Origin: Romanomermis culicivorax
Taxonomy: Eukaryota; Nematoda; Enoplea; Mermithida; Mermithidae
NCBI GenBank assembly: GCA_963922205.1
Contig: CAWUHX010000067.1
Location: forward strand, 62,001-126,000
DNA length: 64,000 nt
Reading direction: 5' to 3'
The notes beneath the pieces are model-generated. The model worked only from the letters and a program-made list of their open reading frames with translations. It made no database searches and was not told where the DNA came from. The position numbers and the translations under genes were made by a program. Shown here piece by piece: positions 8,026-37,274 of this stretch (position 1 is the first letter of the stretch; the number at the start of each line of letters is the position of its first letter).

Positions 8026-8596
8026 TGATAAATACACAACAAGGCGAATTTTGTCGTGAAGAATTCACTGTCATACTATTCTGATGTGAATTACTGTTGA
8101 TTTAAAGAATATACAGAAGACTCGCTTGTATAGTATGTTTTTTGTATAAAAAGTTTCACCCCTATTCAGCGAAACACACAATAGCGAAACTCAAAATAGC
8201 GAGACTCAATACAGCGAGTCTCAAAGCGTCCATGTCTCAAAATAGCGAAGTCCCAGAAAAAATGCCCGAAATAGAGAATTTTCAAAAAAGTTATCTTTAG
8301 AATGGGGAAATGGAGATTGGGCGGGGTAGACGTTCTGGCGCATGACCTGTCTGGTCCTCTATTTCGATCCTTTTGACATCAATCGCCAGATTTCTGACAT
8401 AATAGCTTTAGAGCGTTTTGACGACATTACAGATTTTTATTCTGGTCTGTTTATTATTATTTCATGTTTTTTGTTTATTTTTTCGTTTATCGACTTATTC
8501 CTTTTTTATATTCTTTTTATTTTGAGCCAATTTTTGTTCTTTTTTTATTTTTTCAGGTTGTGTACTTTTGTTTTGTTTTTTACCTACTTTTTATTC
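8026..8596. repeat. Spacer with a short tandem repeat (8165-8265)
   Basis: Downstream of the TTL stop, 8165-8265 holds about seven degenerate 13-16 bp units of the form aatagcgaaactca. The same motif in reverse complement occurs at 39896-40035. The remainder is AT-rich with a T-rich tract up to the LTR of element 1 at 8597. No gene is seen. Confidence 0.7.
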
Positions 8597-9214
8597 TGTT
8601 GGGCACCCTGTTGATGCCAATTCGTGTGGGGAAATCGACATGCAAATCGACAAAAGGGACGACCAGCGGCGCAGACATTTGCATAGAATGGAGCGCCACC
8701 AAAAGACCAAGAAAGATAGTGAAAGTCATTCTTCACTTAATATCGTTTTTATTATATTTCTTGACATTTTTGCTGGCGTCCCTAAATACAATTTTCCCAG
8801 CAACTTGTTTTCTTACTGAGTTATTCACTGTGGTATACCCACATTCTTTTTGCATAATTCGTCGGACTTATTGTTTAACATATTCGTTTGTTTATTTAGA
8901 TATTATTAGCGATCGACGAAGGCGGAGGGCCAAAGGCCCAGGCGCCGGCTTACATCAAGTAAGTTTTGGGAAACCCCTTTTGGGTTATACCCAAGTAAGT
9001 TTATCCCTGAGGGGATTCCTTGTCTCATCTAGGAGACTGCGGAGGTCTTTGGTAAGGCCCCCGTATTTAGAACAAAGTTTATCTTTGTTGTTGTAGGTCT
9101 GGGGATAAACGGACTGTTGCACAGATCACCGAGGCTCAGCCAAGGTATCAGTTCTAACAGGTCAGTTCAGACCCAATCTTTTCTTACGCCTCTTAAGGAA
9201 AGACCTGCACAACA
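8597..9214 (+). repeat. 5' LTR of element 1
   Basis: A 618-bp direct repeat of 22645-23262 with TGTTG...CAACA ends. The two differences found are a/g in 'atcgac(a/g)aaagg' and 'gtccct(a/g)aatac'. An open frame crosses it, but it is shared by both LTRs and does not resemble a known protein. Confidence 0.96.
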
Positions 9215-9216
9215 AG

Positions 9217-9310: not shown

Positions 9311-12300
9311 ATGCCTAACGAAAGGATACCGAGAGGTAATACTTTACGTAGATCACCACCCAGAGTGGCGAGTGCTGGGAATCTAGTCAATTTGGGAGAC
9401 GGAGATCAGCAACGGCATGCTGCTCCGGACCCAGTGGTCCCAGATCAAACTCCCGCGAGGGTTCAACCATTGCAACAAAATGCAATGCATTTTACGCCTC
9501 AAGATGCAGGCGTACCGATTGACCGACCGCCAGCGATTGCCATCGATCCGCAGGAGGCAGGCCCGGCGAATCCGAACCCAGACGCCGATGGACCGCCGCA
9601 ACAAAATTTCAAAAGGTCACCGCCACCAAAGGTCGAATTAGCAGGACCAAAAAGGGACGTCATTACGCCCGAAATTCGACCAAATTTCGAAGAAAGGGAC
9701 CCCGAAATCGATCAAAGATTAGAGAGGATTCCCCAGGAACAAGAGCGATTCCAACCGCAGGAAAGTGCTCCCGAGATGTCCAATCAGGAGTTGGCGACGC
9801 AGCTACGCGAGTTGAAAGGGACCGTCGAGGCCTTGTTCGACATAATCGCAAATGCAGCCACAGAGGACAACAAAAGGGAAGCCGACAGGCGCCGACAGGA
9901 GCCGGATAGACAGGTTAGACCATGTAATAGGGGTGCAGAAAGAGACAACCGTCTCCCTGCTGAAATAAGTGCAGGCGCAGGGCCTAGTAATAGGCCTGAT
10001 GTTGATGAAGGGCAAAGGCTTAACTTTGAGCCCAAAAGTTGGAGAGGTCCAGCTAGAGATCTTCGATTCGAGGGAGCTGAGCAATCGGCAGACTTCAGGA
10101 ATCAAAGTCAGATAGCTCCGCAGCATCCAACTTTAACTAGAGTGGTCTATGATGGTAGAGGAAATATAGTTGATCCAAATACCCTTAGACCAGATCAATT
10201 GGCATCTTTCCCATATAGGGATTACAGGTTTGACAAAGACAATATGCCATCATATCAAGGAGGTGTACCACCTCAACGAGATCCAAATAGGGTTATGCTG
10301 CAATCCCTGAACTCTGATCTTGATCCAGTATTAACAGCAGCTTATGATCAGAGGGAAGTGCCATCAAATAATTTGGCACAAGAGATTGTAGTCAGGAATA
10401 TCGTTAAAGGTGTGTTACCCAAACTTTTAGATGAGGGTATGGTAAATCAGCAGGTGCTTAGCTTCTTAACAGCACTTGAAGGGGAATTCCGTAGGGATAC
10501 ACCCGAATCAGCTAAGTATGAAGCACTGCTGAGGCTTTCTAAAGGTAGACCGAAGGCTGTTGCAGGAGACAACATGACCTATAGGGAGGCCAGGAGAGCC
10601 ATTATTAATGTCTTTGCACCTGAATGTAACCTGGAAATGTTAACCAGGGAGTTGTTTGAGATCCAACAAAGACCCAATGAACAGGCCGTAGAGTTTTTAA
10701 AAAGGGTCAGTATATTAGTGGAACTAGTTAAAGGTGATTTAGACTATCAGTCTAAACAGAGACTGATTATTGATACCTTTATTTACAAGAGTGATCCTAC
10801 ATTTCAGTCTGAACTGAAAAATTCAAAGCATACCTTTAGAACCTGGTATGATCTTGCAGTAGAGGTTCATGATATTGAACGTAGGTACAAAAATGCCTTT
10901 CAGAGATACGGACCCAAGGGTACACAACAGGATCCTATAGTAATTAATGAAGTAGGTATGCCTAGTGGGCATGATCCTGAAATTGCCGTAGTTGCTAGGA
11001 ACCAGTCAGAAGGATATCAACAAGGCCAGAGGCAAAGGTTTCGGCAACCATATCAAACTATAGGTAATCAGGTACAGGCCCAAACCCAAAGGTCAAGGAG
11101 TGATTCTCCTGAGATAGAGGAGATTCCAGTTCGGGAAGCCCCTAGGGCTCAGACCGAAAAAGGTAAGAAAGAATCTCTTCTATTGAAAATCTCAAAAGAG
11201 ATGGTACAACTGGTCGAAAGGTTCGACCAGCTCCAGCAAAAGGTTGACAACAGGCAAATGGAAAATCGGTCTGATGTGGCCATACCTAGTACAAGTCAGG
11301 GAGGTCAAGTTTCCCGAGATCCGACTAAGCCATGGTGTGAGTTCCACAAGAACATAACACATAATACTGCAGACTGCAGGACATTGAGAGTATTGTCCGA
11401 GCGCAGGAGCAGAGGTAGAGCCAGCTTCCCTACCTACAACAGGGGAGGCTTCAACACTTTTGCTCGAGGTAACTATAGAGGTAGAGGAGGTTACCCAAAT
11501 GCCAACTTTAATAGCAGAGGCAGAGGTGCTTATAATGTAGGCTATTCAGGTTATCAGGATAGCCACGAGAGTTACCAACAGAATTCAGATTATAATGAAT
11601 TTCTGGAGTTTAAAAAGCAGAAGGAGCTGCAGAAGCAGTTCCAACAGATGCAGCAATACCAACAGCAAGCTGCATTACAGCATCCTCAGCCTCCTCAGGC
11701 AATTATGGGTCCCACTCAGACTCTGCAACAGGGTCAATTCACAAATCAGCCACCTCAGAAGGATTATTCGAGTGTTATGGTTGCAAGGCAATCTCAAATG
11801 AGTCCTTTAGGTGAAGTAAACCAGAGAGTGAGTTGCCCAAATGTTGTATTAGGTAGTATTGTGCAAATGAATGCAATTGCACCACAACCTGTAGTACCAT
11901 CAGTACAAGTAATAAGGAGAGGCACACCAGCTAGTCCTCAGGAACAACATTTGCTGGATACGTACCCCAGAACAGCCCCATTCCACATTGAGGTTGTTAT
12001 AGGAGGTCGTAAGACAATGGCTTTAATTGACACAGGAGCTCAGTGCACTGTCATGTCGGCTAAGTTTCTGAAAGAAACTTTGGGCCCAGACTACACTGAA
12101 TATCCAAGGATATTAAATGTTACTGTAGCCAACGGTAAGACAGTCCAAGCCCATGGGTATATCCAATTTAGGATGGATACATTGTGTGGACAGTTCCCCG
12201 TAAAAGCAATTGTAATTCCTGAAGCAGGTGAAAATGTCATTGTAGGAACAGACTTTTTGGCTCATCCTCAGGTAGGAGCCATAATAGATTTCAGGAATAG

Positions 12301-15300
12301 GACGATGACGCTCAACAATCGCCAACAACGGATATACGTGACGCCGGACCAGCCCCAATCCAATTGTGGAGAGGTCATGACCACGAGCGCCGCGGAATCC
12401 ACGATGAGCACCGCCGACCAATACCAGCCAAAGATTTGCCTGCTAAAGGTTTCGGTGCCAGTGGTGAGTGTTAATCCCATCTACTTACCTAGTGGTACTG
12501 ATATACTTCTGAGAGCAAAGCTTTGGGATAAGGTAGGCGAAAATCGCCTCAATGGAATCATAATAGAGTCTGAAGACAATGAAGAAAGGTTCCACATTGA
12601 TAGTACCATAGTAGATGGTACAAAAGATGATTTTGTCGTTATGGTATCCAACAACACAGGATCAGGATGCCATTTGAAAAGAAATCAAATAATTGGCCAT
12701 ACTAATTCAGTGTTGTGTGATACTGATAACCAAGATCAACTTAAGGGGAAGATAGTTGAGGATTTGGAGAAGCTGCAAACTTGTGCAGTCCAGGCTAGAC
12801 CTGATTCGACTCAAGTGGATGAGAAAGAGTTCAAGGAAGCCTTGTACAATATGCTAGCTAAATCCAACATACCATCTGAACAATTGGAACAAGCTTTACG
12901 GTGTCTCGCAAAATATAGAGACGTGTTCAGCTTGCCCAGTGATCCTCCAACTACCACACCCTACCTGACCTGTAAAATCAATACAGGCGATGCAGCCCCT
13001 GTGGCCAAAAGGTACCACAGGACCGCTATAAATTTACGGCCACATGTTCGTGAGCATGTGCAAGATATGTTCAAAAAGGGTGTAATTGAGCCATCAAAGT
13101 CGCCTTGGGCAGCCCCGTTATTCCTTGTAGGTAAAAAGGATGGTACCAAGCGACCAGTAGTGGACTTTAGGGGTATAAATGACGTTACCAAGGATGATAA
13201 GTATCCCATTCCTAGAATGGATGACTATCTAGACTGTTTAGGTAAAGCCAAATTTTATACTACCCTAGATCTCAAATCAGGATATTGGCAAGTGCCAATG
13301 GATGAAGAAAGCAAGGAGAAAACCGCTTTCATATGCCAAGAAGGGCTTTATCAATTTAAAGTCATGCCCTTTGGCCTAAAAAATGCGCCAGCCGAATTCC
13401 AGCGTATGATGGAAAGAGTTTTGCATCCATATGTTTGGAAAATCTGTCTAGTTTATATAGACGATATAATTGTGTTCTCAAATACGTTTGAGGAACACTT
13501 AGTTAATCTAGAGCTAGTCCTGCAAGCTCTAAGAAAGGCTCATTTGACCTTGAAGCCGGAGAAGTGTGAATTCCTGCCTGAGAGAGTTCATTTTTTAGGA
13601 CATATCTTAAATTCGGATGGAGTTTCCCCAGATCCGAAAAAGGTCAAAGCTATAAATGATTTCCCATTCCCAGAATCTAAACGTAAACTGCAAAGGTTTC
13701 TAGGTATGTTGCAGTGGTGTAAAAAGTTCATACCGGGTTTGGCTAAACACGCCGAACCGTTGTATAAACTAACTGGGAAGAACTGTGTTTGGGAAGTCAC
13801 GGAGGTTCACCATCAGGCTTTTAGGAGCCTGAAAGAAGCACTATTGTCAGTGCCATTCCTTAGGTATCCGGTTTTGGACGGGTCTGCGGATTTTGTCCTT
13901 CAGACAGATGCCAGCGGAACGGCACTAGGAGCAGTCCTTTACCAGGAGACCAAGTCAGACCGCTGGGTAATTGCTTACAATAGCAGAATTTTAAAGGCGG
14001 ATGAGAAAAAGTGGTCAGCCACGGAAAGGGAATGCTTGGCAATTGTGTATGGCTTGAAGTTATACAAGCACTACTTAGTGGGTCATAAGGTGATCATAAG
14101 AACTGATCACAAACCTTTGTTGTCAATGAAGGTTAACGCCATGACCAATGGTAAGCTGAAGAGATGGTACTCATTCATCTCTCAGTTCAACCATAAACTA
14201 GAGTATGTGCCTGGAAAACAAAATGCCATGGCAGACTTTTTGTCCAGGATGGATGAACCAGACGATCAAGCGGAAAAGATACCGCCAAAATGGGAACACA
14301 TGTTCTCAGAGGATAAACGAGAGTCCGAAAATCTGAAAGATCTTGAAGCACAGCTTATTGAGAAAAAACACCTCAATTTGGTGAAGAGATTCAGAATTCT
14401 GACAGATCGGAATCCTGAAGACGGTACTCCGTTACATCCGGAGCCAAAAGGTAAGAAGAATCAGAGGACTGATATGAGTCCGAGATTCACCCAGGTTTAT
14501 CCAGAAGATTCTGAGGGTGATCCAGAATTAAACTCGCCTGCAGACTTGATAAATGCCGTAACTACAAGGAGCATGGCGAAGGAAGCGGACAAGAGTAATC
14601 AGGCTCAGATCCAGCCTGATGGCAATCAGGTCAACGGAAAGGTAAGTAGGGGAAATCAGGACAAGGGTAAGGAAAAAAGAGTAACCTGGTTATACCCAGA
14701 AAAGGAACAAGAGTTTACTTTGGCAGACCCCAAAGAAGATGAACTACCAAAAGGGCTAATTAGAGATGATCTCATGGCCCTCTTGCAGAGAAAAGATGAG
14801 GTACTACGACCATACTTTGATAGATTGGGTCCAAATGCGACAACCAAGTATCATAGTGGATTTTATATCCAAAATGAAGTGTTATACCGCGAAGCTGGAC
14901 AGGGGTCGGACGATCAAGTGGTCGTCCCATCCTGCCTTAGGGACAATACTTTGCACCAGTACCACGGTGCCGTAATGATGACTCATCAGGGGTTCAAAAG
15001 GACCCTTGCTATGATTAAAAAACGGTTCTGGTGGCCTGGAATTGAAAAGGATGTCAGGCACTGGATCAAGTTTTGTCCAGTTTGTCAAATGGCTAATCAG
15101 GGAAACACAGAAATTCCGCCACTGATACCAATTATTCCACAAGGTCCTTTTGACATAGTATCAGTGGATATCGTGGGTATTTCTCCACTCAGTGAGAAGA
15201 GACCGTATGTCATAGTCTTTCAAGACTATTTTACAAAGTGGGTTGAAGCTGAACTGATCCCGGATCAGTCAGCTAGCACCGTTGTAGATACTTTTCTACA

Positions 15301-16147
15301 AGCTATTGTATTTAGGCACGGGACTCCACAGAGACTACTCAGCGATAGAGGAGGTTGTTTTACCTCAGATCTAATGAAAGAGATCTGCAAGTTATTGGAG
15401 TGTCAAAAAATTTTTACAACAGCCTACCATCCACAAGGAAATGGTATGGTAGAACGGTTTAACCAGACACTCATCAAACAGCTCAGAAAGGTGGCCATCG
15501 AGGAAAAAGATAACTGGCCAAGATACTTGAGAGCTGTGGTGTTTGCTTACAATGCCACACCACATGCAGCCACGGGGCAATCCCCATTTTCGTTGCTTAG
15601 AGGTCATGAGGCAACCTTCGGGTTAAACTTATCGAAAGCATACGATATTGTAATGCCGGACAGCAATGCTGAGGCATACAAATTTGTGTTGACCAATCAT
15701 TTAGTCAACCTTTACGAGGATATTGCCAAAAATATCCAGAGTGCTGCCGAAAAATCGAAGAAATACTTCGATAAAAAGTCCAAACAAAATGGATTTAAAG
15801 AAAAGGATTGGGTTCTGCTCAAAGTAGATAAGCAGAAAAAACTAGGACTACCATGGTCCGGTCCGTTCATAGTTACGGACATTTCGCGAGAAGCAGAGAA
15901 TGTTGTCACCATTGTACATTGGGACAACCCGCTAAATCGCCAAACTGTTTCAATCAGCAGGTTGAAACATTTTCGTTACGAGACCACTAGGGTCTTGCCG
16001 CGAATAGCGCGAGCCAATCAGGACGCGCCACGTGACGAAAATACGTCACTTTCCAATATGGCACAAACAGTTACGACTGGAGCGCCGATTCAAATGAAAT
16101 CATTTGAAAATTCGCTCAAGGCGAATCTATGCGCGATCTCGCGCTGA
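9311..16147 (+). CDS. Gag-Pol polyprotein of element 1 (Gag, protease, RT, RNase H, integrase)
   Basis: A single 2278-codon frame begins 97 nt after the LTR. Residues 1-330 are Pro/Arg/Gln-rich; about 350-560 look like a retrotransposon capsid domain (Y-E-A-L-L-R-L..., R-R-A-I-I-N-V-F). A Cys/His cluster near residue 675 (C-x2-H-x5-H-x4-C) and an RG-rich stretch near 700 may bind RNA. The protease active site is DTG at about 907, with IVGTDFL downstream. RT has the YIDD box at about 1382; RNase H starts LQTDAS at about 1530. Integrase has its HHCC zinc domain at about 1882-1926 and DDE residues at about 1953, 2010 and 2046, then a GPF-type C-terminal module. Gag and Pol share one frame with no stop or frameshift. 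All catalytic motifs are intact. This would supply particles and the reverse-transcription and integration machinery. Confidence 0.96.
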
Positions 16148-16567
16148 TTTTTTTTTATTTTGTGTACATATCTCGCGCGTGTAAGTACTAATTTTAATTA
16201 AAATTGTATTAATTTGTAATATTTATCGCGTTTATGTAGTATTCGTGTTAATTTTGTAAATTTTTCATATTAATTTCAGACTTTGGGAAAAATTCTTCGG
16301 AATTTTAGACCAAAGTGACAACCCAAAAAATTTCTGACATTTTTTCTAAAAAATTAAATTTCAAATTTTTCATTTTTCCAAAAACAAACTATAGCTGCCC
16401 CGCTTATCTGAATTCTAAACTTCCATCGGAAGGAAGAAGGAAAATATTCCCCGAATCGCGATAAAAAGGAAATTAGCAAAATTGCTAGATTAAACTTTTT
16501 CAGCGTTCAAAAATTTTAAAAAATTATAAATTTATTCGAAAAGAAAAACATTTCGAAAAGAAAAGAA
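16148..16567 (+). other. Gag-pol to ORF2 spacer in element 1
   Basis: AT-rich, with no plausible coding sequence. It lies between the gag-pol stop and the first ATG of the ORF2 model. A splice acceptor or internal promoter for the ORF2 transcript might lie here, but none can be singled out. Confidence 0.4.
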
Positions 16568-19500
16568 ATGGGAAAAGGCGCGCGGAACCGCCAACAAGCT
16601 CCGACGCGCGAGTGGTCGCACACAGAGCGCCACGTCGAATATGGCAGGGCCCAGCACCGCCAAGACAACCGTTTTTTCTTCATCGACGGTAAGTTTCGAA
16701 CTTATTTTTATCAAATATTCTTGGAAACCGCAGGAAATGCCCAGAAGTCACTGGAAGACCAGCTCGGCGCCCCAAAGAGCAGACGAGGTTAGGACTTAGA
16801 GGGAACGAAAAATGGGAGTACTGCGAAACGGAAGCTCGAAGCCAAGCAGGGAATTTCCAATTTGGAAATATACCTGATACCACCGAGAGCTATAGGATTC
16901 AAGGAAAACCTAGAACCTTGGGTTCAGCCCGTTTTAAAGTTTTATCATTCAAAAATTCATCAAAAATTATTTATTTTCAAATCAAATCAAATCATATCAC
17001 TTTTTCGATACAAAATTCATTAAAAATTATCAATTTCGAGCGCTATAAAAATTGTAAATACAGCGCCATAAATGGAGCGTAGTTGGTCGCTCAAGCAGCT
17101 GGTCAGAGATTGGTGTCCGATCAAGTGGTGGACAGTCGGATCAGGTCTACCCTCCCCAACATATAGAGGTAGCAAGGGTAAGATTTGGTAAGGTGTTAGT
17201 TGCCTACCAGCTCAATGTTTGTATATCAGTGGCTCACCTAACAACCTGCACTAAACTTAATTTTCTGCGAAACTTAACCCGCTTGGTGTTGTGGTGCTGG
17301 TGTAGTATAGACCCGAAAATGCGCTGAAAAAAGGGGAATAAAACACTAAAATTAATAGTACTTTATGTTTAGATTATAACGTCAAACGGGCCGTACGAAT
17401 CCACGAACTGGATCAGTGGTTTAAAGCCACATTTGGGTACTGGCCGGCCAATCCCAAGGAACCTCGAATGGTAGACATCGGGAAGGTCAGCCAGGTACTC
17501 CATTTTATCCGAGAAGTGTCAATCTTCAGAGGACAACCAGTTTGTGGCTTCGACGTTGAAAAAGTCAACCAGGATAAGGTCGCCGCCTTGTTCAAAACAA
17601 GGGAGGTCGACAATCCAATGGGAAAGCAGTTTGCCCGATATATCAGCTTCGCGCTAACGAATGGTCAAACCTACGTTATTGATACAACGTCGATGATGAT
17701 CAAAGAGTGGACCAGCCTCCACGACTTCTTGAACTCCGACATGCTCTTCGCCGGATATGCCGTACTGGAGGATCTGGTGAGTATCTATAACGTTTGTGGC
17801 GCAGGGTGAGATAATAAGGACAGGGACAAAACTGTCCCCTTACGGGAATTTCTAAGGAAGACCAAAGGTCGATACTTTGACTTAGACCGTTTCGCCCTCA
17901 CCATGGTAGGAGTAAACCTGGAGAAAAAATGCTTTCAGACAGGTATATGTCCCGAAACTTTTCGGTTAAAGGGACTGTTCACGGAATTTTATTTGATAGA
18001 CGTGGGCCCCTACCAATATGACTTTTCGTTAAAAGCGAACCGTGATCGGTTTGCCAAAAGGGATATATTGCCGGAAGAGCTCAGATACGCCGCTCTAGAC
18101 GCATACTACTCCTTATTGGTCATGTTTGCCGCCATTCACTATGGCATGGCCGATCAACTGCTTATGCAAATGCAGATTTTCGACCATGACAAGGTGGATC
18201 CCAAACAGATCAACACCATTGCCCTGCATTTTTATCAACAATATCTAATGATTCCGGGCAATGTGAACCGAGAAATGGGGCTAGGTACCCCAGTTATGGA
18301 AACCGATCAGGTTCAACCAAATATGGTCTATCACATGATGAAGTGTGAGATGTATAACCGTTGGGCGGTACAGATGCAGGGAAATAACACAGGTTATTAT
18401 ACCGCGCCCACGGAGTGTAATCCAGTTCGTCCGCAGGGAGTTCAGCTGCCAAGTGGTTTCTACCCACTACTTCCAAGAGATAACAAACCAATGAAGGACG
18501 ACGGATACACCACAGATAGCGATCCCGACGAAATCCAGGACGTCCAGATACCAGACTGGGTTAATATTTCAAAAGATATCCTGGAAAATCTCAAGTCAGG
18601 TGGAACCTACTGGGATTTAGACGGGAAAATTTCCTTAACGTTGTACGAAAACGCCAAGCTATACTGGCAACAAGCCGGGAAGCCCGATACCATTCCACAA
18701 GAGGTGTTTTCCTCTAATAACCACTACCCAGTGGGTATCGAGGGCCATAGACAGGCCTATAAGACCAATTTTTACACGCCAAATTTGGCAAAAATTTCAG
18801 GTATGTTGGATGAGCGAAACTTCCCAGAGTTAGAGGTCATCTGCAAATTTATGCCATTGGCTTATCATTTGGCATGGCCTCATTCTAGAGCGGAGTGTGA
18901 CTATGAAACTAGCGCTCTGCTAAACTATAACTTTCTAAATAGTTATACTAAAGAGGGCCAGGAAATGATAAAGAAAATGTCCTGGAAGTCAGGCGACCGC
19001 CTGGCTTACTATTTAGAATTAGCAGCGACGCTACCGCCGTCGGAACCCCGCTTTCCATCTAAAAAAGGGGTATACGCATGGCAGAATCGGTTCGGTTTTG
19101 TCCCGCTACGATTTCGAGAAGCCGAGGAGATCCTACAAATTGGCGACGACAAATCGTTATTGAAGGACGGAGCCTACAAGGTAAATCCTTATTTTTATGT
19201 AACTTTTTACTACGTAGGCTTCGAGACTTTAACGCCGGGACTGCGGCATCCCATGACGGAAGACGCATCGCCAACCGACTACCCGATTACCTACGCACCG
19301 AGAAATCCGCTCGAGCTCAGACCGGAGTTTGTCAGCAAAAGCTTCCGGGAGAGAACAATCGCTTCGGAAATGCCCGGGTATACACTTACATATACCCCAG
19401 CCGGTGAGTTAATTTCTAAGGTACCGCTAAATCGTCCCTCAACTTCCCAAACGGCGCAAGCCGGAGGGACGGGACAGGTCAAAGCGCAGCCGCAGGCGCT

Positions 19501-21901
19501 AGCGCCAGTGGTCAAAGCTACACCAGCTTTGGACACTGCTGCTACGCAGGCAGCTGCAGTAGTTGTCGTGGTGCCGCCGCCAATCCAACCAGCGGTGGCA
19601 CAGCCGACTCAAGTACCTCAAGTACAACAACCGGCCGAGCCTGAGCCAGAGGTTGTCACCATAATGCAATCAGTACCTCCAGCACCAGCTGTTTTGCCAG
19701 CTAAAGTAAAGCAGCTGTTGCCGAAGATACGAAATTCAGACTCTGAGTCCAGTTCAGAGGAGGATGTAGAAGAAGAAGAAGAGGGTGAAATCCTCGAATC
19801 TGAGGGCCAGACATCAGAGAATAAGGATGCGATGGAGGCCAAAACTCAGAAACAGGCTCTTGAGGAGGAAAAAATCCAGACTCAAATTGACGAAGCAGTC
19901 ACCAAAATGTCAGGGATCGATGTCAGACTGGAGAAGATGCAGGAAGCATCCCAGGAGATACCTGTGAAGGCCAAAGATCCTAAGGATCATGACCGTCAAG
20001 CGAAGCAAGAGGCCCTACAGGCCAAAATTCAGGAACAGAGAAGGCTGACGCAGCAGGAATTCCTGCGTCAGAGGGCAATCCAAAGAAAGCTGAAGGAGCA
20101 GGCACTAGCCGACGATAGCTCAGATTCAGCCATTGCAGCGACAGAGCTGATGCGGAGGGGAAGAATTGCCGAGGAAGGCATTCCTGGAATTTATTCCCCA
20201 GACAAAGTTCAGCAGATGTTAGCTGAAGGTATGTCGGAAAAATTTATCCGACACCTAGCCAAGGAAAAGGTAAGGCGTAGAAAGAGGATAGGTAAGGCCA
20301 AGCGACGCAGACTTGCAGCTCAGGGACAGCAGCAACAAGGAGCGGCCGCCACCGGATCCGAAAACGACGCCTACGATACGGCCGAAGAAACGACGACCCC
20401 ACAATACTCGACGAGCCAAAAGTCGAGATCGGAGACTTCAAAGAGTCAGACGAGAACGGAGACTTCAAAAAGTCAGACGCGAACGGAGACCTCCATAGGC
20501 CAGACAAAATCGGATAGGACAACAGGGTCCACTGCGACAACATCGTACACTCAGACGCGAACGGTATCGAAAACCGGCGGAGAGGTTAGTACTTCTTCTG
20601 GCAAAAGTAAATCCGTGCCCTCCAGCTATACCGCAAGAAGTAGCAAACCTGCGGGAAGCGTATTGGTGAAGCCCGATCTTGAATCGGAGGAGAAATTGAT
20701 CAAGAAGGTCAAACTGAATGTGGTAGCTACTAGACCCGAAAGGGAACCACAGCAGTTTGTCACTCCTGGTCAATTAGCCGAAACTCTGATTGATTATTGG
20801 GAGTGGCAATGGGAACAAAGGCGCCTAATTGGGCCGATCTCATTTGAAAATCCAGAGGTCGCCAATTACTTCGCCTTTGATCGGCAAGAACGGCCGATAA
20901 TTTACAGAATGGTCAATGATGCCATGGCCGAGATTCACGAAAATTACCGCCAGCAATTCGAAATGCAAGGCGCATTTATGTTTGACGGAGAGCGCATCCC
21001 TGAGGAGATCTGGGAATGGATAATTTTAATTCTCATCCCCAGATGGCTTCAGGACTACGATGCCTCAGACGTCTTTACGGCCATTAGGTATGTGACCCTA
21101 ATGATTTTTCTTCAGTTGGACTTCGCTCCGATCACGCCAACGGCAATTGGTAGGTGGTATGCCCAGGCGTGTTCGTTTGCGAACAGACAACTAGTTGTTG
21201 AGGCCCAGGGAAACCGCGTAGACGATGTCTACATTGCAGCCTTTAATCAGTATATTTTTATGGGCTCGCAAAGGTTAAACCAGATGGGTGTTAAGAGGAA
21301 AGCACCAGGCGATGACAGGTCGCAAGCTGATAAATTTCAGCGAACGGCTGCCAAGAGCCCGAGTAAGTTCAAGGTGCCTAGACTCCCTCCGGCTAAGAAA
21401 CAACCACCGATGATACAACAATCATCGGCTACGACCAGCCAGAGGTCATATAGTGAAGCTGCTAGCACTTCTTACAAAAGTCCGCTTTCTCGGTCAAAAT
21501 CAATTTCATCTAAATCTCTTAATTCAACTTACCGGACACAAAAACCACAACGCAGCAGCTCCACTAGCAGTGGTCAAAGGCAGCAGGGGAGAGACGATAT
21601 GTTCTCAAACCCGGCCCCGTACAGGGCTAGACCGGGGTATGACCAAGGTCAACCCAGGGGAGGCTTCAGAGGGCGCCCTCAGCGACCTTACAGAGGCCGA
21701 GGAACCTGGCAACACCAAGGTCAAGACCCGGATGCTCAATTCCATAATCCGAATTTTATTCCGCTAGGTAGACGCGGCGGAAGCCAACAAGGCCAAAATA
21801 GAGGCCAGGATGGAGGTCAGACCCGAGGCCAACCAGGTCAGAGGGGGTACTATCAAGGTAGACCTCGAGGAGGCTACCAAGGCGGCGGGCAGCAGCAGTA
21901 A
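16568..21901 (+). CDS. ORF2 of element 1: DEDDy 3'-5' exonuclease domain plus long low-complexity RNA-binding-like tail (spliced)
   Basis: Proposed exons are 16568-16688, 16734-16787, 17373-17776 and 17861-21901. All junctions are GT-AG and keep phase, giving 1539 residues; the last intron removes an in-frame TGA at 17807. Residues about 80-290 match the RNase D/WRN/MUT-7 exonuclease family: Exo I FDVE (D119, E121), Exo II G-Y-x-V-L-E-D-L (D192), Exo III Y-A-A-L-D (Y269, D273). All five DEDDy residues are present, so 3'-5' exonuclease activity on RNA or DNA is predicted. Residues from about 290 to 780 are globular-looking but unrecognised. The tail has Pro/Ala/Gln runs, an acidic block (19735-19805), Lys/Arg/Glu-rich helices, a triplicated T-x-T-S-K-S-Q motif (20420-20490) and an RGG-type C-terminus (21600-21900). 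The start codon and first two exons are less certain than the exonuclease. Confidence 0.85.
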
Positions 21902-22644
21902 ATAGCCGCAAAATTTTGGCCCAAAAATTTCTTTTTCTTACATATATTTTTACTTATTTCATAAAACACAAAACCCAAAAACACTAATAAAATAACAAAA
22001 AATCCAAAAAAAAATCAAAAAACAAAAAATCCAAAAACATTTCTTTTCGGTGCTGCTGGCCATCAAAAATCTCTTTTTTGACAAAACCGGTGCAAAAACG
22101 CAACCGTAAAAAATATTTTAACTTTTGGCCACATTCTTGCTCAAATTTTTTAGCGCATTTTAAATTTTGTGATATCCGTACAACCCCGCGTCGTCTTTTT
22201 GTATCGCCATATAATCTCGTATTTTAGTTTAATTTAGAAAAAATAGAGACGCGGGAAGTCGATTTGCATGCGGTTAGACCCACAGCCAACGAATTGACAC
22301 AGCATGCAGACCGAGCGGCCGAGCCCGAAGCCGACCACACATCCGGCACCGACGTTTACGTCATACTCCCTAGGGCAGGAGGTTATTCCATCAATGCCGA
22401 GGTCAAAATGGACGTCACTTGCCAGCCATTGCGGCGAAGCCCTTGGTATTCGTTGTGTCCAATGACCAGCACAGGAGTTCTATTAGGACAGACTGTGAAA
22501 CGGGAGTCCGGTGAGACAAACTGTTTATCAGGAGTCAGCCGGAGTTGTAGATTTTTTCTTTTTGATTAATTCTTTTAATGCCGGGGTAACCCGGCCAAAA
22601 GTTTTTTTTCTACCTCCCGTAGGTCGGTTTCGACGCGCGAGGGA
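21902..22644 (+). other. 3' non-coding region of element 1
   Basis: A-rich, then mixed sequence between the ORF2 stop and the 3' LTR. No conserved protein is visible; an open frame at 22264-22569 has no recognisable content. The 10 nt before the LTR (cgcgcgaggg plus a) are purine-rich but make only a weak polypurine tract. Confidence 0.55.
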
Positions 22645-23262
22645 TGTTGGGCACCCTGTTGATGCCAATTCGTGTGGGGAAATCGACATGCAAATCGACG
22701 AAAGGGACGACCAGCGGCGCAGACATTTGCATAGAATGGAGCGCCACCAAAAGACCAAGAAAGATAGTGAAAGTCATTCTTCACTTAATATCGTTTTTAT
22801 TATATTTCTTGACATTTTTGCTGGCGTCCCTGAATACAATTTTCCCAGCAACTTGTTTTCTTACTGAGTTATTCACTGTGGTATACCCACATTCTTTTTG
22901 CATAATTCGTCGGACTTATTGTTTAACATATTCGTTTGTTTATTTAGATATTATTAGCGATCGACGAAGGCGGAGGGCCAAAGGCCCAGGCGCCGGCTTA
23001 CATCAAGTAAGTTTTGGGAAACCCCTTTTGGGTTATACCCAAGTAAGTTTATCCCTGAGGGGATTCCTTGTCTCATCTAGGAGACTGCGGAGGTCTTTGG
23101 TAAGGCCCCCGTATTTAGAACAAAGTTTATCTTTGTTGTTGTAGGTCTGGGGATAAACGGACTGTTGCACAGATCACCGAGGCTCAGCCAAGGTATCAGT
23201 TCTAACAGGTCAGTTCAGACCCAATCTTTTCTTACGCCTCTTAAGGAAAGACCTGCACAACA
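22645..23262 (+). repeat. 3' LTR of element 1
   Basis: Direct repeat of 8597-9214 with the same TGTTG...CAACA termini, followed by the TSD attc at 23263-23266. Confidence 0.96.
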
Positions 23263-23567
23263 ATTCCATTATTTTACTTTTCGTTTCTTTATTATTTGTT
23301 CTGTCTTTACTGTTTAATTATTTTATTCATTTCATCCTTTTTGCTTATTTCATTTTGTTTTATTTATTTCATTAATTTATTTTTTTTGCAATTAAGCTCC
23401 ATACAAAACAACTTTAATGGGAATCCTCATGATAATTTTTTGTTTTTTTTTCAAACGTTTCGCAAAAATGTTTTTCTGACAGATATTTTTTTGGTGATTT
23501 TGGCATGGTCCGTTGGTACATACCTACCGTAACTGCAGACCAAAAGCATCTAAAACTTAGATGTCCA
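23263..23567. other. 305-bp T-rich host spacer between the two LTR elements
   Basis: T-rich low-complexity DNA continuing the T-rich sequence found left of 8597. It ends with the TSD tcca (23564-23567) of element 2. No gene is seen. Confidence 0.7.
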
Positions 23568-25030
23568 TGTCACATATTGCGCCATCCATGTCACGTGTAT
23601 GACATGTGGATTTGGGAGAGCTGGGGAGGTTTGGGTATCGCATCAGGTGATACCGTGTTTTAGACGTCACATTGATGGTGAACCATATCAGATTGATCCT
23701 ATTACAGTGAGTAATAGGCTGTGACTCCTGATGGATACTGGCATTTTCCCCAGGATTCCCTAAATGGCGTTGGGGGCCTAACCTGGCGATTAGTGGCTAT
23801 AGAGAGGTCTATAGCTGGTTCTCTTGGGTTGTCCTTGGGGTCTTGCTGTAGGGTAATGGACAACGCTGCCAGGCTAGGTGCGACAACCCCCGAGTCCTAC
23901 TCAGTGAGAGTGGGGACAGGGTCACCCGTAAAATGACCTAAATTATGGGGCCCGATTATGAACCAGACAGCCCCTTTTTGCCCGAACCTGAGAGGTGGAG
24001 GCCCTACTTATCTGTGGAAACCTTGGGAAACCGACTCAGGAAGGATTTCCCAACAAATAACCCACAAATAACAACAATCCCCTGAGAAGACTCACCTACT
24101 CCTGTTTCTCAAGCGATTACGATGCAACGGGCGGCAAGTCCCTGGATGCTTTCGGTCTTCTGGCACTGGGAGCGGGGGATGCGATCCTCAAACGTCCTAG
24201 GCGGCGAGCGGCGGCGAGCGGCGGCGAGCGGGAGGGAGCGGGAGCGAGCGGGAGGCGAAACTCCAACGTTTAATTCACGAACCGGGGCGGTCGGACACCT
24301 GGCACTGATGGGCAGCGGGGTACTGTAAACGGTAGGCGGCGGACGCAGTGAACACGGGTAAATTTATGCAAATTTATTGATAGTAAGGCGGCGGACGCAC
24401 AGGTATATAATAAAATTATGCAAATTTGACGAGGAGGCGGCGGACGCGGAGTGACAACTGGACGAAAGCTTGGTGAACCCAAGAATGAGCGAAAAACTAA
24501 AGAAACATGTCCTTTTAAGGACATGTTTGGCTACAGCTGCAGCTTGGGCGGAGTTTCTCGGCGCTCAAGCTAACTTCTGCAGCTAGACGCGATGCAGAAG
24601 ATGCCTATGAGCACATAGACATTTTTTCATTCACATGCGTTTAGCACTGAGGCCGGCTGCAGTGCCTATGCTAAGCATATGAACGTCTTTAGCTAAAACT
24701 TCTTAGCTAGTCGTTTTGCGTAACAAAAACGACGCTAATTTTTGATGATAAGAGGTGCGTGAGCGCACCAAAAATAGCCATGTGCTCGTGGAGCACGACT
24801 GGCGGAAGTTTTTAGCTAAAGGGCCTACTGTAGCCCGCGTTTGTAAAGAAATAAAAATACAACAAAACGAAACATAGAAATGCATGAAAAATATAAAAAC
24901 GAACGTAAAATGCATGTGTAAAAATGAAATAAACAAAAGCATGATCGGGTAATAAACAAAACATGAAAAATAACAAAATGTCGGCATGATCGGGATCACG
25001 TGACGTTGGAGAATTGAGCGGCACGTGACA
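23568..25030 (-). repeat. 3' LTR of element 2 (left copy)
   Basis: A 1463-bp direct repeat of 38307-39769. Differences seen: ctactcctg vs ctagtcctg, attacgatgc vs attacgacgc, and ggcggcggacgc vs ggcggcagacgc. It contains a G+C-rich minisatellite of gcgagcggcg units (about 24200-24255). Confidence 0.96.
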
Positions 25031-25549
25031 CGGCGGTCCTTCGAAAAAGGGCGTCCTCGTCCTTGCAGTGGTCAGTAGTGAGGTTTTATGCGGCGTGTCC
25101 GTGGTCGTAGGTCATTCCAAGGTGTGACGGCGAGAGTGGTCGAATAGGTCCGTTGGGTTGTCGGTGGATGAGGCCTTCTTTGATCGTAATTCGTTCGGTG
25201 GTATGGTGACCGGAGGTTGTTTATGCGTGGAGTAGCCGACATTGAATATCCTGTGCGAAGGTCTAGAACACAGGAAAGAAAAAATTTTCAGGGCAAGATG
25301 TAGGCTATCGCAGAGGATGCGCCCAGTGAGGTACAGATTGTCGGGCTATCGCAGAGGATGCACCCTGAGAGGTGTAGGCTATCGCGTGAGGATGCGCCTA
25401 AGGCGTGACGCTTAGGTTGCTGAACGCTCTCTTCTATCCACTAAGATCCAGCATGGACAAGAGTGGATACTTCGTGAGGGGCACGGCGGTCCTTCGAAAA
25501 AGGACGTCCTCGTCCGTAAGCGGGGACAATGAAGAGAGTGCATCCTGAG
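25031..25549 (-). repeat. 3' region of element 2 with short direct repeats
   Basis: Between the polyprotein stop and the 3' LTR. Three copies of a ggctatcgc.gaggatgc motif lie at 25301-25320, 25343-25361 and 25375-25397. A block of about 34 bp directly abutting the LTR (about 25029-25062, cggcggtccttcgaaaaagg and on) recurs at 25482-25515 next to the stop codon. A clean polypurine tract adjoining the LTR is not visible. Confidence 0.7.
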
Positions 25550-28500
25550 TTACGGGTCGGGGACCTCTGCATCAAGATGTGGGTCAATCAGATTCGGTGT
25601 AAAGTCCCGGCTTATTGATGGATACAATAAGGGTGCCGAATCCGTTGCCTGTGAAGTGGGAGGTGTATCCTCTGCTTCACTCGGTTGTTCAGGGGACACG
25701 TAAAGTCGAAGCTGGTTGACATGTACAGTGTCTTCCTGATCCATCTCGAGACGAAGTGTGACATTGGGATATGCCACACTTGTTACAAGGTAGGGTCCAT
25801 CGTAGATGGGCAGCAATTTAGGAGTGAGTCCACGTTTGCTGGAGGTGCGCAGTTTGAGCACCTGATCCCCTACTTTGTACGAGACATCATGTGCCCTCCG
25901 GTCGTACGACCGTGCATAGGCTTCCTGTGCTTTCTCAATCCGACTCTGGATTAAGGTTAACGCATTCGTGAAATGACGTTTGACCTCCATATCATATGAG
26001 GAAACATTAATGATATGGGCCGGAGGGTTGAATGAGAGCGCGGCGTCAACAGGGAGCATGGGTGTGCGACCGTACATGAGTTCAAAGGGCGAGTACCCTG
26101 TTGACTCATTCATGCTGATATTGACGGCAAACACAGCGTATGGTAGGTGTTCATCCCAATCAGTATGTCCTTGATGAACATACATACGTAGCCGTGTGGC
26201 TAGCGTCTGATTAGCTCTTTCCACTTCGCCGTTGGTCATCGGGTGATAGGCGGTAGAGTGGATTTTCTTCGTTGCGCAGATCGCAGTGATTTCAGTCATC
26301 AGTTTTGATGTGAAATCAGTGCCACGATCTGACTGAAGAATCTGCGGTGCCCCGTGCCGGCAGACAATTTGCGTTACAAACAGCCGGGCTATGGTGTTCG
26401 CAGTGATGTCCGGAGTAGCGAAAGCCTCGACCCATTTCGTAAAGTAGTCGATAAAGACTACGATGAAACGGTTGCCAGCTTCGCTAGTGGTCATTGGTCC
26501 CATGCAGTCGACACCTACCCGGTGAAACGGTCCCGTGATGGTGATAGGTTTCAGGGTCGCAGTGGTTTTCTGTCGAGCGGGCTTATTCCGTTGGCAAAGA
26601 TCACACCGCTGACAGAAGGACTTGACATCCCGACTGAGGGAGGGCCAGTGGTATCTGCGAGCAATGAGCCGCGCAGTACGTTTAGCACCGAAATGTCCAG
26701 CTAAGATGTCATCGTGATGAGCCCGGATAATGGTAGTAACCATGGATCTGGGTATGACGATCTTATTGGACTCGCCTGTCCATTTCTGAAGGACGTTATC
26801 CAACAGATGGTAGCCTCGCACATCATTCTGGTTGCCCAGAGGCTTAAGAGAGCGAATGATGTCGGCTAATTCCGGATCCTCCAGCTGAGCAGCGAAAAGG
26901 TCGGGGTGCTGCGCACCGACGGATATCTCGGCATAAGACTCTGATCGTACCGGGCGCTCCGCGCCAACAGTGACCGGTGCTGAATTACTTGAACGCGCCA
27001 GGTGCTGCACACCATCGGTCAAGGTCCTTGATCTCGCCAGGTGCTGCGCACCATCGGTGATCATCATAACGTGCCCCTCAGGTCTGTAAAGGGGAGTATC
27101 ATCAATACTCTGACCGGTGAGGGAGTTAGGATCCGGCAGGCGTGATAATGCGTCAGCATTACCATTAGACTGACCTTTTCGCGGCCGAATTGTCAGTTTG
27201 AATTCGGCGAGCACGAGTCCCCACCGAGCGATCCGAGCAGAGGGGTTAGGCTTCTCCAACACTGCTTTGACCGCGGTATGGTCAGTCTGAACGACCACCT
27301 CGTGCTGGAAGAGGTATGGTCGAAAGTGCTTGACGAAATGGACAACAGCGAGAGTCTCCAGTTCTGTAATGGAGTAGTTTTTCTCGGCCGCTGTTAACCC
27401 TCGGCTGGCGTACGCGACAGGATGGTCGTATCCATTTTCGTCTAACTGGCTAAGAACCGCTCCTATCCCCGAAATACTCGCATCAGTTTGAAGGATAAAG
27501 GATTTCGAAAAGTCCGGATGGCGCAGGATAGGAGGGTTGGTCAGCAGGCGGCGGAGTTCATCGAACGCCTCCTGCTGAGGTTTTGACCACTGGAAAGTAG
27601 TTTCCTTCCGTAAGAGCTTGGTGAGTGGCTCGCTGAGCCGGGCACAACCAGGGATGAAACGCCTGTAGTAAGACACGAGGCCTAGGAAGGACTTGATGTC
27701 TTTGGCGTTTTGTGGAATGGGTAGGTTTTGGACGGCGGCCAGCTTGGCTTGGTCAGGTTCTAGGCCGCTCTGTGAGATGCGATAGCCTAGGTACTCTACC
27801 TCTGAGTGCGAAAATTTGCACTTGCTCAGTCTGAGCTTCATTCCACCCCGGCGAAGACGGGCGAACACATCTGCCAGGCGCTCAAGCATTTGGGTGTGAG
27901 AGTTCCCGAACACCAAAATGTCGTCGAGATAAGTCAGAACCGTGCGCCATTGGATTCCAGTAAGGAGGAGGTCCATAAGGCGTTGAAATGTCCCTGGCGC
28001 GTTGCATAAACCGAAAGGCAAATAATTGAATTCGTATAGTCCAATAGGCGTATTAAAAGCCGTCTTTTCCTTATCGGCCTCGGCAATCGGGATTGACCAA
28101 TAAGCGTTAGCCTGGTCAAGGGTAGTGAAATACTTCATACCCTTGAGTGTGTTGAGGATGTCATCTATCCGTGGGAGAGGGTAGACATCCTTTTTCGTGA
28201 CCTCGTTAAGACCACGAAAGTCAACACACATACGGTGAGAACCGTTTTTCTTGCGCACCAGGACAGTATTAGTAGCCCACGGAGACGTGCTGGGCCGAAT
28301 AATACCTTTCTCCTGGAGCGCCTTGACCTCCTGCATGATGAGATCCTTTTCCTTAGGTGAGGACCAGTAAGGAAAACGGCGGACTGGGCGGGCATCACCC
28401 GTGCTGATTTCGTGCTGGACGAGATCAGTGGAACCTGTGTCCTTTTCATCAAGAGCATAAAGGTCGGTGTATGCAACCAGTAGATCGAGTAAGGCGGCCC

Positions 28501-31500
28501 GGTCCCGGGGGGAGATGTCCGGTGAGATCACAGCATTGGCCTCGACCCACTGACGATCGAGGACGGTGTCTGAGTCGACCGGTGATTCCCGTGAGGGCTC
28601 ACTATGCATTTGCACATGACCGATGGTCGTGTGCGGGTAGAGAACCACGGAGTGAGTACTCGGGTTGACCACCTGAAGCGGTATGTGACCGTTGGTCACG
28701 GTACTGACGCTTCCTGCAAAATATACGTGTCGTTGAGACCCGGTGAGGTTCTTCGGAAAGAAGGCCACCTCAGGCACGTTCGTATAGATTGGTGGGACAG
28801 GTACAGTGAATCGTGTCATGGAGGGAGGCTCTAGAATCACCAAGTCCTTCAGGGGCAAAGCGCCGCGGGCAGAAGGTGGGCTGTGGATGAGACCGTCACA
28901 GGGGATTCTACTCTCTTTGAACTGGAGGAAAGATTTCTCCCAGTTCAAACTGACACAATTGAACCGGCCGAGGAAATTGGTTCCGAGGACCAGTTCAGCT
29001 GAACAGTTCTCCTGTATTTGGACCTGAATCCGTTCAGAGACATCAGCCACTGTAACTGTGATGTAGGCTGCTCCTAGCAGTGGGATCGGGGACCCGTCGG
29101 CTGCGATAGGGCGTGCCCTGGTTGGTGATAGTGACAAGTTGGGCAGCTGGGCCGCTAACTTGTGGTCCAAGAGTGAGAAAACAGCTCCTGTGTCGACCAG
29201 TGCCTTTGCTTCTACCCAGTTGTTGAGGAGAACTTTGATGTGGGGTGTCCGAATATCATTTGGGTAAAAAGCCGTGACCACATGACCGGAATCAGGTGTG
29301 GTGGCACCACTAACATGTTTGGTCTTACCGGACCGCTTTGGAATCGGCAGTCCCGTACGACGTAGGAGGCCTACTAGAGCGTATCCGACGGAGGGTTCCG
29401 GGTCATTCAGAAGGGTGGACTCATCCTGTACTGTTAGTATGTGGTCTGAGTGATCCTTCGGACTCTGAGTAGCTCCTAGTGATTCAACCTCGGTGTCCGA
29501 TAGCGGAGGCGCGTTTGGCACGGGTGATGTCGGAGCATCTGAATCACTTGGCTCACGGTATCGGCCCTTCTCTAGCGTTACTGGAGAGGTTCCAGGCGGA
29601 GGTCGAGGGCAACCTGACCCGTGCAAGGTCGACAGATGACGACTTGCCCGTCTAGAAGAGGCCCGGGATCCCCTAGTTGACCCACGTGATGAGGCAACTG
29701 AGGAGGCCCGTGAGTGTGGCCGAGAGATGGACGAAGCCCTGGACCGCGATCGTGATCCCGACCTGTGTGAGTTTCGCGAGAGAGCACGGGTGTTCTCCCA
29801 CCAGGGGTCGATCTGGTCAATCTCCGGCATGGTCAGCAGGAGGGGTAATTCTACCGCGTCCAGCCGACAAACATTACGTTGGTAGTCAAACATAATGTTC
29901 TTGAACTGTTCTAAGAAGTCCAGTCCGAGTATGAGGTCAACAGGTGCCCAGAAGGGAGACGTAGTCTTGCACACATGGAGATGTACATCGATCCGTGTGT
30001 TCGGCTGGCGGTTTCCGGGCAACATGATTTCATATGGTCCCGAAAGGATGGTATGAACGGCTTTACCATTGATGCTCATCAATGGGTTAAAGTCGTGATG
30101 TTGCTGGAACGCCATGACCGCCTTCGGACTTTCTTTAGCCAAGGCCTTATGAAGGCGTTGGCTAATGATAGTGCGTGGGCAACCCGTGTCGAGGAAAGCA
30201 GGAGTTTCCTTGGTGTCCAGCAGCACGATGAAGCACGGTGTGATCCGGTCAAGCTGGGAGGGCACATCGTTTTGCACGTAGTGAAAACCGACCCAGCGTT
30301 GGACTTTGCGGTAAAGACCCAACGGGGAGAAACGGCTAACAAACCTGACCTGTTTGCTCCGCAGACGGTAGCTGAGATAATAAGATACACCAAGATAGGC
30401 AAGGTATCCTGCACCGATCAGCACTGTCAGGGTAATTAGGATGTTAAAGATCAACTGGACCGGCCCGCTCAGGACAGCATGCAAGCCCTGGGCGAGGGTG
30501 TGCTCTTGACCCGTAATAACATGGTTTGCTGCCAAACCGACACCTTCCAGAGAGGCCTTGATGTCGGTTCCTACCCCTGCAAAGGCCTGGTAGATGGCGT
30601 CTGGTTGCAGGGATAGACCAGCGGTAAAATTTACCAGCCGGTTGAGTACCGCTTCAATTTGCTCAGTCTTGTAAACGTACTGTTTAAAGAAGGCAAAGTT
30701 TGAAGGGGTCATCGCCAACTGGTCATGGAAGAGCGCTGGTGCCTCAAAGTGAGTGATGTTGAAGCGCTGCTTCCAGAAGAGTTCCAGTGGGATGTGGCTC
30801 ACATGGACCGCGCCAGACTCAGTAAACCAGCCCGAGCGATTTCGGAAAATCCCCGTAAAGTGGTGATGACACGGCACAATTGGGCTAGATTTAATGAGAT
30901 CCGGACCACCGGGGGTGGCGAAGTAGATGGTGCCGCCAACCTGCACAGGTAAGTACTTGTAGCAAACGTTCCCCACCCGGTACGAATGGTAAACGTAGGT
31001 GGCGTTGACCTTCTGACACGGCCATATTGTCAGCGCATCGCCTGTGAATTCCGCCGTCAGGTCATTCCTCTGGAGGAATGCCCGGGCACCCAGGGTAGGG
31101 TCGAAGCGAAGCAACTGCCAAGTCAGATCAAGATAGCGTTGAGCGTGAGAGCAAAGCTCAAGCCACGTGAACCGGAAACCGTTAATTTCCGACTCCTTGA
31201 TCTGCTGAGCCAGATAGTTCAGCTTGGCATTGACAGGATCGGGACGGCTGTCCGTTGCCACTCTGAACATGTTTTGGGTCAAATTGTATCTCCCGTGGAT
31301 GCGAAGGAGAAGACCCTGATCCGTCCGGACTGTGGTGGAACGTAGTTCTGGGCACAGTTGGAAGACACGGGAGTTTCCCGGGATCTTGAGGGCAACCTGC
31401 AGATCATCGATGATGACGTGGTTCCCTGACATGGACGCAGTGTAATTTCCCTTGGGGTGATAATGACATCGCGCCGTGAAGTTTTGTGCAGGCCAGACAA

Positions 31501-37270: not shown

Positions 37271-37274
<4 letters not shown>

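What the first reader, a model, noticed from the sequence alone, without database searches (positions are those of the whole stretch)
16568..21901. LTR retrotransposon carrying an intact WRN/RNase D/MUT-7-type exonuclease
Seen: ORF2 has all five DEDDy residues (D119, E121, D192, Y269, D273 in my spliced model) in the right order and spacing, inside a young element. Known: DEDDy exonucleases of this family include WRN, EXD2 and nematode MUT-7, the last needed for transposon silencing and RNAi. Inference: the element may use the enzyme to degrade or trim host small RNAs, to process its own RNA or cDNA ends, or as a decoy of MUT-7. I know of no Ty3/Gypsy element with such a domain.
Basis: partly seen in the sequence, partly recalled or inferred. 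Interest (0 to 1): 0.93.

Follow-up and report, generated by a model that had tools for sequence, protein, structure and literature searches.

The report
Worm retrotransposon with exonuclease-like gene
A young virus-like jumping element, probably from a mermithid worm, carries an extra gene whose front end is related to enzymes that chew nucleic acids from the 3' end; the gene belongs to the element's family but is interrupted by a stop in this copy, and a similar acquisition was already known from rotifers.

Summary
The element is real: 14,666 bp, 618-bp LTRs 99.7% identical, target duplication ATTC, one open Ty3/Gypsy-type gag-pol ORF. [quoted passage not shown] Its N-terminal part is a very divergent DEDDy 3'-5' exonuclease-type domain: one sub-threshold Pfam hit (PF01612, E 0.0071), but a profile-profile score of 41.7-43.4 against a DEDDy profile, versus at most 18.8 in 391 shuffles and 17.1 in 42 other segments. 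The domain is a family trait: 31 relatives, 30 labelled Romanomermis culicivorax, a mermithid nematode; 8 of 26, and 3 of 5 found later, join it to pieces of this element's gag or pol. Two reader claims fail. The domain is not intact here: the assumed intron is translated in all 6 relatives that span it, so this copy has a premature TGA at 17807-17809. And DEDDy ORFs in LTR retrotransposons are in print, from bdelloid rotifers (PMC5408684). Best reading: an RNA-handling accessory protein from a spliced mRNA, acting on 3' ends of the element's own nucleic acids; function not shown. New variant of a known kind.

The parts
8593..8596 (.). target-site duplication ATTC, left
8597..9214 (+). 5' LTR, TG...CA; holds donor-like GTAAG sites at 8959, 8995, 9052
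9311..16147 (+). gag-pol ORF, 2278 aa: aspartic protease, RT, RNase H, integrase (Ty3/Gypsy order)
16495..16503 (+). candidate splice acceptor CTTTTTCAG, 64 bases before the ORF2 ATG; 16568 is the first ATG after it
   Evidence: use not shown
16568..16688 (+). ORF2 exon 1 (model), donor GTAAGT at 16689
   Evidence: relatives P0003, P0017, P0020, P0028 match it
16734..16787 (+). ORF2 exon 2 (model; may be skipped)
   Evidence: P0007, P0028 keep it; P0003, P0020 skip it
17373..21901 (+). ORF2 exon 3: DEDDy domain, then about 1200 aa without a significant Pfam match, RG-rich tail; one in-frame TGA
17381..18274 (+). DEDDy exonuclease-type region as profiled (298 codons)
17552..17560 (+). ExoI: D119 and E121
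17771..17773 (+). ExoII: D192
17807..17809 (+). premature in-frame TGA in this copy
18086..18100 (+). ExoIII: Y and D (Y297, D301 in read-through numbering)
22645..23262 (+). 3' LTR
23263..23266 (.). target-site duplication ATTC, right

Best explanation
The element is a Ty3/Gypsy-type LTR retrotransposon of a mermithid-like nematode whose third gene region (ORF2) encodes an RNA-handling accessory protein with an N-terminal DEDDy 3'-5' exonuclease-type domain. Shown by computation: a young element, remote homology of the domain, linkage of the domain to gag and pol pieces in relatives, a premature stop in this copy. Inferred: ORF2 is made from a spliced subgenomic mRNA (donor in the 5' LTR, acceptor ending at 16503, first ATG 16568), as env or Cer1 CERV mRNAs are; the RG-rich tail binds the element's RNA; the DEDDy domain engages and, in copies with a full active site, trims 3' ends of the element's own RNA or cDNA in its RNP. 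This copy can hardly make the full protein, so either its mobility rested on protein from other copies or the stop arose after insertion.
For: DEDDy homology: hhalign 41.65 and 43.43 against null maxima of 18.8 and 18.4; window sequence alone 36.4 and 40.9; PF01612 is the only Pfam hit of the shortened domain (E 0.0071). Family trait: 26 hits of 609 candidates, 25 labelled R. culicivorax and one label cut off; 8 of 26 join the domain to gag or pol pieces, and 3 of 5 found later do (P0028, P0030, P0031). Spliced 5' end: N-terminal exons and the junction at 17373 recur in relatives' gene models. Donors in the LTR and a strong acceptor before ORF2. Highest Kyte-Doolittle value over 19 residues is 1.50, so no env-like anchor is evident; six RG[GRYF] motifs after residue 1400. 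Precedents: a spliced 3' ORF acting on genomic RNA in Cer1 of C. elegans (PMC10309623, passages); 3'-end processing suggested for rotifer DEDDy ORFs (PMC5408684).
Against: Catalytic residues are not well kept in relatives: first D in 7 of 12 models with an ExoI motif; last residue of ExoIII is D in 3, E in 3, N in 1 of 7. No relative gene model was found with all three motifs. The ExoI block alone does not beat its null (6 of 100 shuffles reach it), and the best local match of the ExoII block lies behind D192, not on it. Single DEDDy templates score only 11-22. AlphaFold models are too poor to show the fold (pLDDT 51 and 42), and Foldseek had no match at E <= 0.001. No transcript or activity data.
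Confidence: 0.5

Rival explanations
1. ORF2 works like Cer1 CERV: a nuclear RNA-binding and export factor for unspliced genomic RNA, in which the DEDDy fold is a partly degenerate RNA-binding module, as in catalytically dead cellular relatives; nuclease activity is not needed.
For: Same position (3' of pol), inferred spliced mRNA, nematode Ty3/Gypsy element (PMC10309623 passages). First and last catalytic D are replaced in 5 of 12 and 4 of 7 relatives with the motif. Dead DEDD derivatives (Maelstrom, EXD1) that keep RNA binding are named in PMC5408684.
Against: E121 is kept in 13 of 13 and Y in 7 of 7 aligned relatives, and the window copy has all five residues; many relatives may simply be decayed copies. 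The CERV passages read describe no DEDDy domain.
Confidence: 0.22
2. The exonuclease attacks host small RNAs or their precursors, a counter-defence of the element.
For: In Trichinella, a clade I nematode, transposons are silenced by RdRP/Dicer small RNAs with DNA methylation and without piRNAs; methylation machinery is present in R. culicivorax (PMC4323106 passages). MUT-7, a DEDDy protein, is required for transposon silencing and RNAi (title of a reference listed in PMC5408684; otherwise recalled).
Against: No sequence feature points to small RNAs; MUT-7 was not compared as a whole and the subfamily is unresolved; nothing tested.
Confidence: 0.13
3. One reading: the 51- or 84-nt stretch is an intron, so this copy makes an intact enzyme.
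For: GT...AG borders and an open frame after removal; the domain scores better in Pfam and hhalign without the stretch; the match of P0009 ends at 17779, next to the donor at 17777.
Against: 6 of 6 relatives that span the stretch translate it, with conserved sequence, and none of 31 removes exactly 51 or 84 bases. A cryptic splice in this copy alone is not excluded.
Confidence: 0.1
4. A passenger: a host exonuclease gene fragment picked up by chance and decaying.
For: Stop in this copy and variable catalytic residues in relatives.
Against: Domain linked to gag or pol pieces in 8 of 26 relatives and to downstream ORF2 parts in others, at 46-84% identity; 1363 open codons after the stop.
Confidence: 0.05

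Closest known systems
Bdelloid rotifer LTR retrotransposons Juno and Vesta with DEDDy ORF3 (PMC5408684)
   Same: LTR element with gag, pol and an extra ORF with RNase D-like DEDDy exonuclease homology and no TM domain (abstract and passages read)
   Different: Other phylum; here ORF2 is about 1550 codons with a long unknown part, RG-rich tail and an inferred spliced start; the rotifer motif is given as DEED; no sequence comparison with the rotifer proteins was made
Athena/Terminon retroelements with DEDDy ORFs (PMC6431247, PMC5408684)
   Same: Retroelement with accessory DEDDy exonuclease (passages)
   Different: Penelope-like RT, telomeric, not an LTR-gag-pol element
Cer1 of C. elegans and its CERV protein (PMC10309623)
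   Same: Nematode Ty3/Gypsy element; extra ORF between pol and 3' LTR; spliced multi-exon mRNA (passages)
   Different: CERV is 517 aa with no obvious homology outside nematodes; no exonuclease domain is described in the passages read
Cellular DEDDy exonucleases (WRN, EXD2, RNase D; MUT-7 not compared)
   Same: Colinear ExoI-ExoII-ExoIII alignment with a WRN/EXD2/RNase D profile
   Different: 15% identity in the profile alignment, 105 residues from ExoII to ExoIII, transposon-borne, fused to a long C-terminal part without known relatives

Membership tests
Ty3/Gypsy (Metaviridae-type) LTR retrotransposon | paired LTRs with TG...CA ends and short target duplication | tested here: met
   618 bp, 2 mismatches, ATTC/ATTC
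Ty3/Gypsy (Metaviridae-type) LTR retrotransposon | domain order PR-RT-RNase H-IN with matching Pfam models | tested here: met
Ty3/Gypsy (Metaviridae-type) LTR retrotransposon | RT phylogeny within Ty3/Gypsy | not tested
   no reference RT set was fetched; clade not assigned
DEDDy 3'-5' exonuclease family | profile match above curated cut-off | tested here: not met
   PF01612 16.6 bits against cut-off 23.6, only with 17 residues left out; none for the read-through domain
DEDDy 3'-5' exonuclease family | remote homology across ExoI-III beyond chance | tested here: met
   hhalign 41.65/43.43, null maxima 18.8/18.4
DEDDy 3'-5' exonuclease family | D-x-E, D, Y-x3-D active-site residues | tested here: met
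   present in the window; variable in relatives
DEDDy 3'-5' exonuclease family | RNase H-like fold | tested here: inconclusive
   AlphaFold pLDDT 51, no Foldseek match at E <= 0.001
DEDDy 3'-5' exonuclease family | nuclease activity | not testable with these tools
   needs an assay
MUT-7/WRN subfamily | closest placement within DEDDy enzymes | tested here: inconclusive
   eukaryote-only and bacterial-only profiles score alike, 26.0 and 24.2; single templates 11-22; MUT-7 itself not compared
Bdelloid-type DEDDy ORF3 elements | LTR element with extra DEDDy ORF beside gag and pol | tested here: met
   organisation against the description in PMC5408684
Bdelloid-type DEDDy ORF3 elements | common descent of the DEDDy ORF with the rotifer ones | not tested
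   no rotifer protein was among the hits, and none was fetched
CERV-like protein | spliced mRNA and nuclear export of genomic RNA | not testable with these tools
   splice sites only predicted

The most novel reading that the evidence does not exclude
Mermithid Ty3/Gypsy elements have turned a MUT-7/WRN-type exonuclease fold into an element-borne factor that removes or disarms the 3' ends of host RdRP/Dicer small RNAs (or of their templates), an anti-silencing enzyme in a nematode lineage without piRNAs.
Probability: 0.12. Interest if true: 0.88.

Novelty: new variant of a known kind. Interest (0 to 1): 0.55.

Why it matters
It suggests that LTR retrotransposons took up DEDDy exonuclease-type genes in a second animal phylum, in a family where the domain recurs in many copies and is fused to a large protein with an RNA-binding-like tail. 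If the domain is active or still binds 3' ends, it offers a way to ask whether retroelements process their own 3' ends or act on host small RNAs; nematodes of this clade, lacking piRNAs, are a telling place to ask. It also corrects the record for this copy: the gene is broken here.

Tried and rejected
Intron model for 17806-17856 (and 17777-17860): accepted at first, rejected after relatives were read. Host-gene chance insertion: rejected as main reading. Env-like role: no anchor evident. Homology of ORF2 with this element's gag-pol or with the neighbouring element's ORF: none (best E 2.5 and 1.7). Whole-ORF2 protein search: 5656 candidates, none at E <= 1. Viral contig scans with the RT region and with 17903-18400: no relative confirmed. 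NCBIfam and PHROGs: no match for the 4 and 3 proteins given. Profile against PDB sequences: none. AlphaFold of the domain (19 rows) and of an ORF2 C-terminal piece (4 rows) gave poor models. The null may hold stale values because failed hhalign runs were not caught; one search replaces it (failed shuffles dropped there: 6 and 3 for the two full profiles, 2 for the one without ExoIII). The ExoII pattern demands the D, so its 7 of 7 says nothing; the aligned count is 6 of 7, the seventh being a duplicated match of P0008. dN/dS, copy number in the host genome and a subfamily tree could not be done: no nematode DNA was reachable.
Full report
What is there. The finding lies in a complete LTR retrotransposon of 14,666 bp (8597-23262). 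The LTRs (8597-9214, 22645-23262; 618 bp, TG...CA) differ at 2 sites, and the 4-bp duplication ATTC flanks both ends. One open ORF (9311-16147, 2278 aa) has aspartic protease, RT, RNase H and integrase matches in Ty3/Gypsy order. RT phylogeny was not done, so the clade is open.

ORF2. [quoted passage not shown] A model with exons 16568-16688, 16734-16787 and 17373 onwards is consistent with splice borders and with relatives' automatic gene models: P0007 and P0028 keep exon 2, P0003 and P0020 go from exon 1 straight to 17373. Such models are predictions, not transcripts. The 5' LTR holds donor-like sites (8959, 8995, 9052), and CTTTTTCAG ends at 16503, with 16568 as the first ATG behind it. A spliced subgenomic mRNA is therefore likely (inference).

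The broken frame. Relatives speak against both. Of 31 relatives, 6 match the window unbroken across the stretch (P0010, P0013, P0018, P0023, P0025, P0028), and P0030 covers it from 17810 on; all translate it with recognisable sequence. None removes exactly 51 or 84 bases. Read as coding, this copy has one premature stop, TGA at 17807-17809, between ExoII and ExoIII, and no other before the end. Relatives open at this place exist; I go no further on that. A cryptic splice that skips the stop in this copy is not excluded.

Is it a DEDDy domain? Pfam gives one match, PF01612 (E 0.0071, 16.6 bits, cut-off 23.6), and only for the version without the 17 residues. The read-through version and the 11 of 31 relatives scanned give none. 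NCBIfam (4 proteins) and PHROGs (3 proteins) give none. PDB sequence searches give no DEDDy chain. I therefore built a profile of the family from 10 rows (A4; 9 of 31 relatives, X-padded) and compared it with a profile of 8 DEDDy sequences: WRN human and mouse, EXD2, E. coli RNase D and four bacterial-type PDB chains, one of them a reconstructed ancestor. The score is 41.65 (probability 77%), or 43.43 (83%) without the stretch. Shuffling the columns gave at most 18.8 (194 runs) and 18.4 (197 runs); 42 segments from gag-pol, the neighbouring element and the rest of ORF2 gave at most 17.06. The full alignment, of the version without the stretch, is colinear and puts ExoI, ExoII and ExoIII on their counterparts. 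By parts: the profile without ExoIII scores 19.9 (0 of 98 shuffles reach it) and ExoIII alone 23.8 (0 of 100); the ExoII block scores 20.0 (0 of 100), but its best local match lies behind D192; ExoI alone does not stand out (6 of 100). Single templates are weak (11-22), and eukaryote-only and bacterial-only profiles score alike (26.0, 24.2), so the subfamily cannot be named. AlphaFold gave no usable fold (pLDDT 51). My view: homology is well supported, membership by curated cut-off is not met, activity is unknown.

A family trait. The domain search found 26 proteins among 609 candidates (E 2.9e-67 to 1.2e-8). Of these 25 are labelled Romanomermis culicivorax; the label of P0005 is cut off in the output. 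A profile search found 25 among 2013 candidates, 5 of them new and labelled R. culicivorax; one of the five, P0032, has only E 8.2 there and is counted for its matching end. No other organism appeared. In one search, 8 of the 26 (P0003, P0006, P0007, P0014, P0016, P0019, P0025, P0027) also match this element's gag or pol, as do P0028, P0030 and P0031 of the five new ones. The domain thus travels with the element. Identities of 46-84% suggest another mermithid or another subfamily; the window's species is not known to me. R. culicivorax is a mermithid (Enoplea, Dorylaimia).

Against an active enzyme. Among relatives with an ExoI motif the first D is kept in 7 of 12 (Y 2, N 2, V 1) and E in 12 of 12. 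Among those with an ExoIII motif the last residue is D in 3, E in 3, N in 1 of 7. In the aligned count, of the first 26, E121 is kept in 13 of 13, Y in 7 of 7, D192 in 6 of 7 (the seventh a duplicated match of P0008) and D119 in 6 of 11. Many relatives are fragments and may be dead copies. No gene model was found with all three motifs.

How it may work. ORF2 shows no evident membrane anchor and ends in an RG-rich tail, so an RNA-bound role is more likely than an env role (inference). In Cer1 of C. elegans a spliced ORF in the same place, CERV, is required for export of genomic RNA (PMC10309623, passages). For rotifer DEDDy ORFs 3'-end processing has been suggested and catalysis is yet to be shown (PMC5408684). 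I commit to an RNA-handling protein whose DEDDy domain grips or trims 3' ends of the element's own nucleic acid (0.5). A purely binding, CERV-like role is the main rival (0.22). An anti-silencing enzyme is the boldest reading not excluded (about 0.12): nematodes of this clade lack piRNAs and use RdRP/Dicer small RNAs and DNA methylation, shown for Trichinella, with the methylation machinery present in R. culicivorax (PMC4323106, passages).

What is known. DEDDy ORFs in bdelloid LTR elements were published in 2017 and, by that paper, were acquired at least twice (PMC5408684, abstract and passages); later articles repeat it (PMC6431247 passages; PMC6338049 passage). I saw no report of one in a nematode in the ten searches of the open-access library; for most papers I saw only the listing. 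The claim is therefore a new host phylum, as far as those searches reach, and a new protein architecture for a known kind.

Noticed in passing
window 23568-39769, minus strand: A second young LTR element (LTRs 1463 bp, 3 mismatches, TSD TCCA on both sides, which corrects the off-by-three flank check). Its single 3038-aa ORF (34666-25550) has a sub-cut-off Ty3 capsid match, then a viral fusion glycoprotein match (Monjiviricetes_fusion, E 2.4e-13, residues 1145-1288), then PR, RT, RNase H and IN: an env-like domain inside the gag-pol ORF, ahead of the protease, instead of behind pol.
   Followed up: partly
window 1479-2707: Diverged relative (69-76%) of the second element's LTR.
   Followed up: no
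window 2925-3271, 7209-7591, 40593-41568, 56477-57803: Dispersed, partly inverted repeats at about 76-84% identity.
   Followed up: no
window 16148-16567 and 16788-17372: Non-coding stretches around the first ORF2 exons with several ATGs and splice-like signals; control of genomic versus spliced RNA may lie here.
   Followed up: no
P0005, P0028 (relatives): Automatic names such as Tsr3 C-terminal domain and DUF4216 are attached to proteins that carry the ORF2 domain; likely mixed gene models.
   Followed up: no
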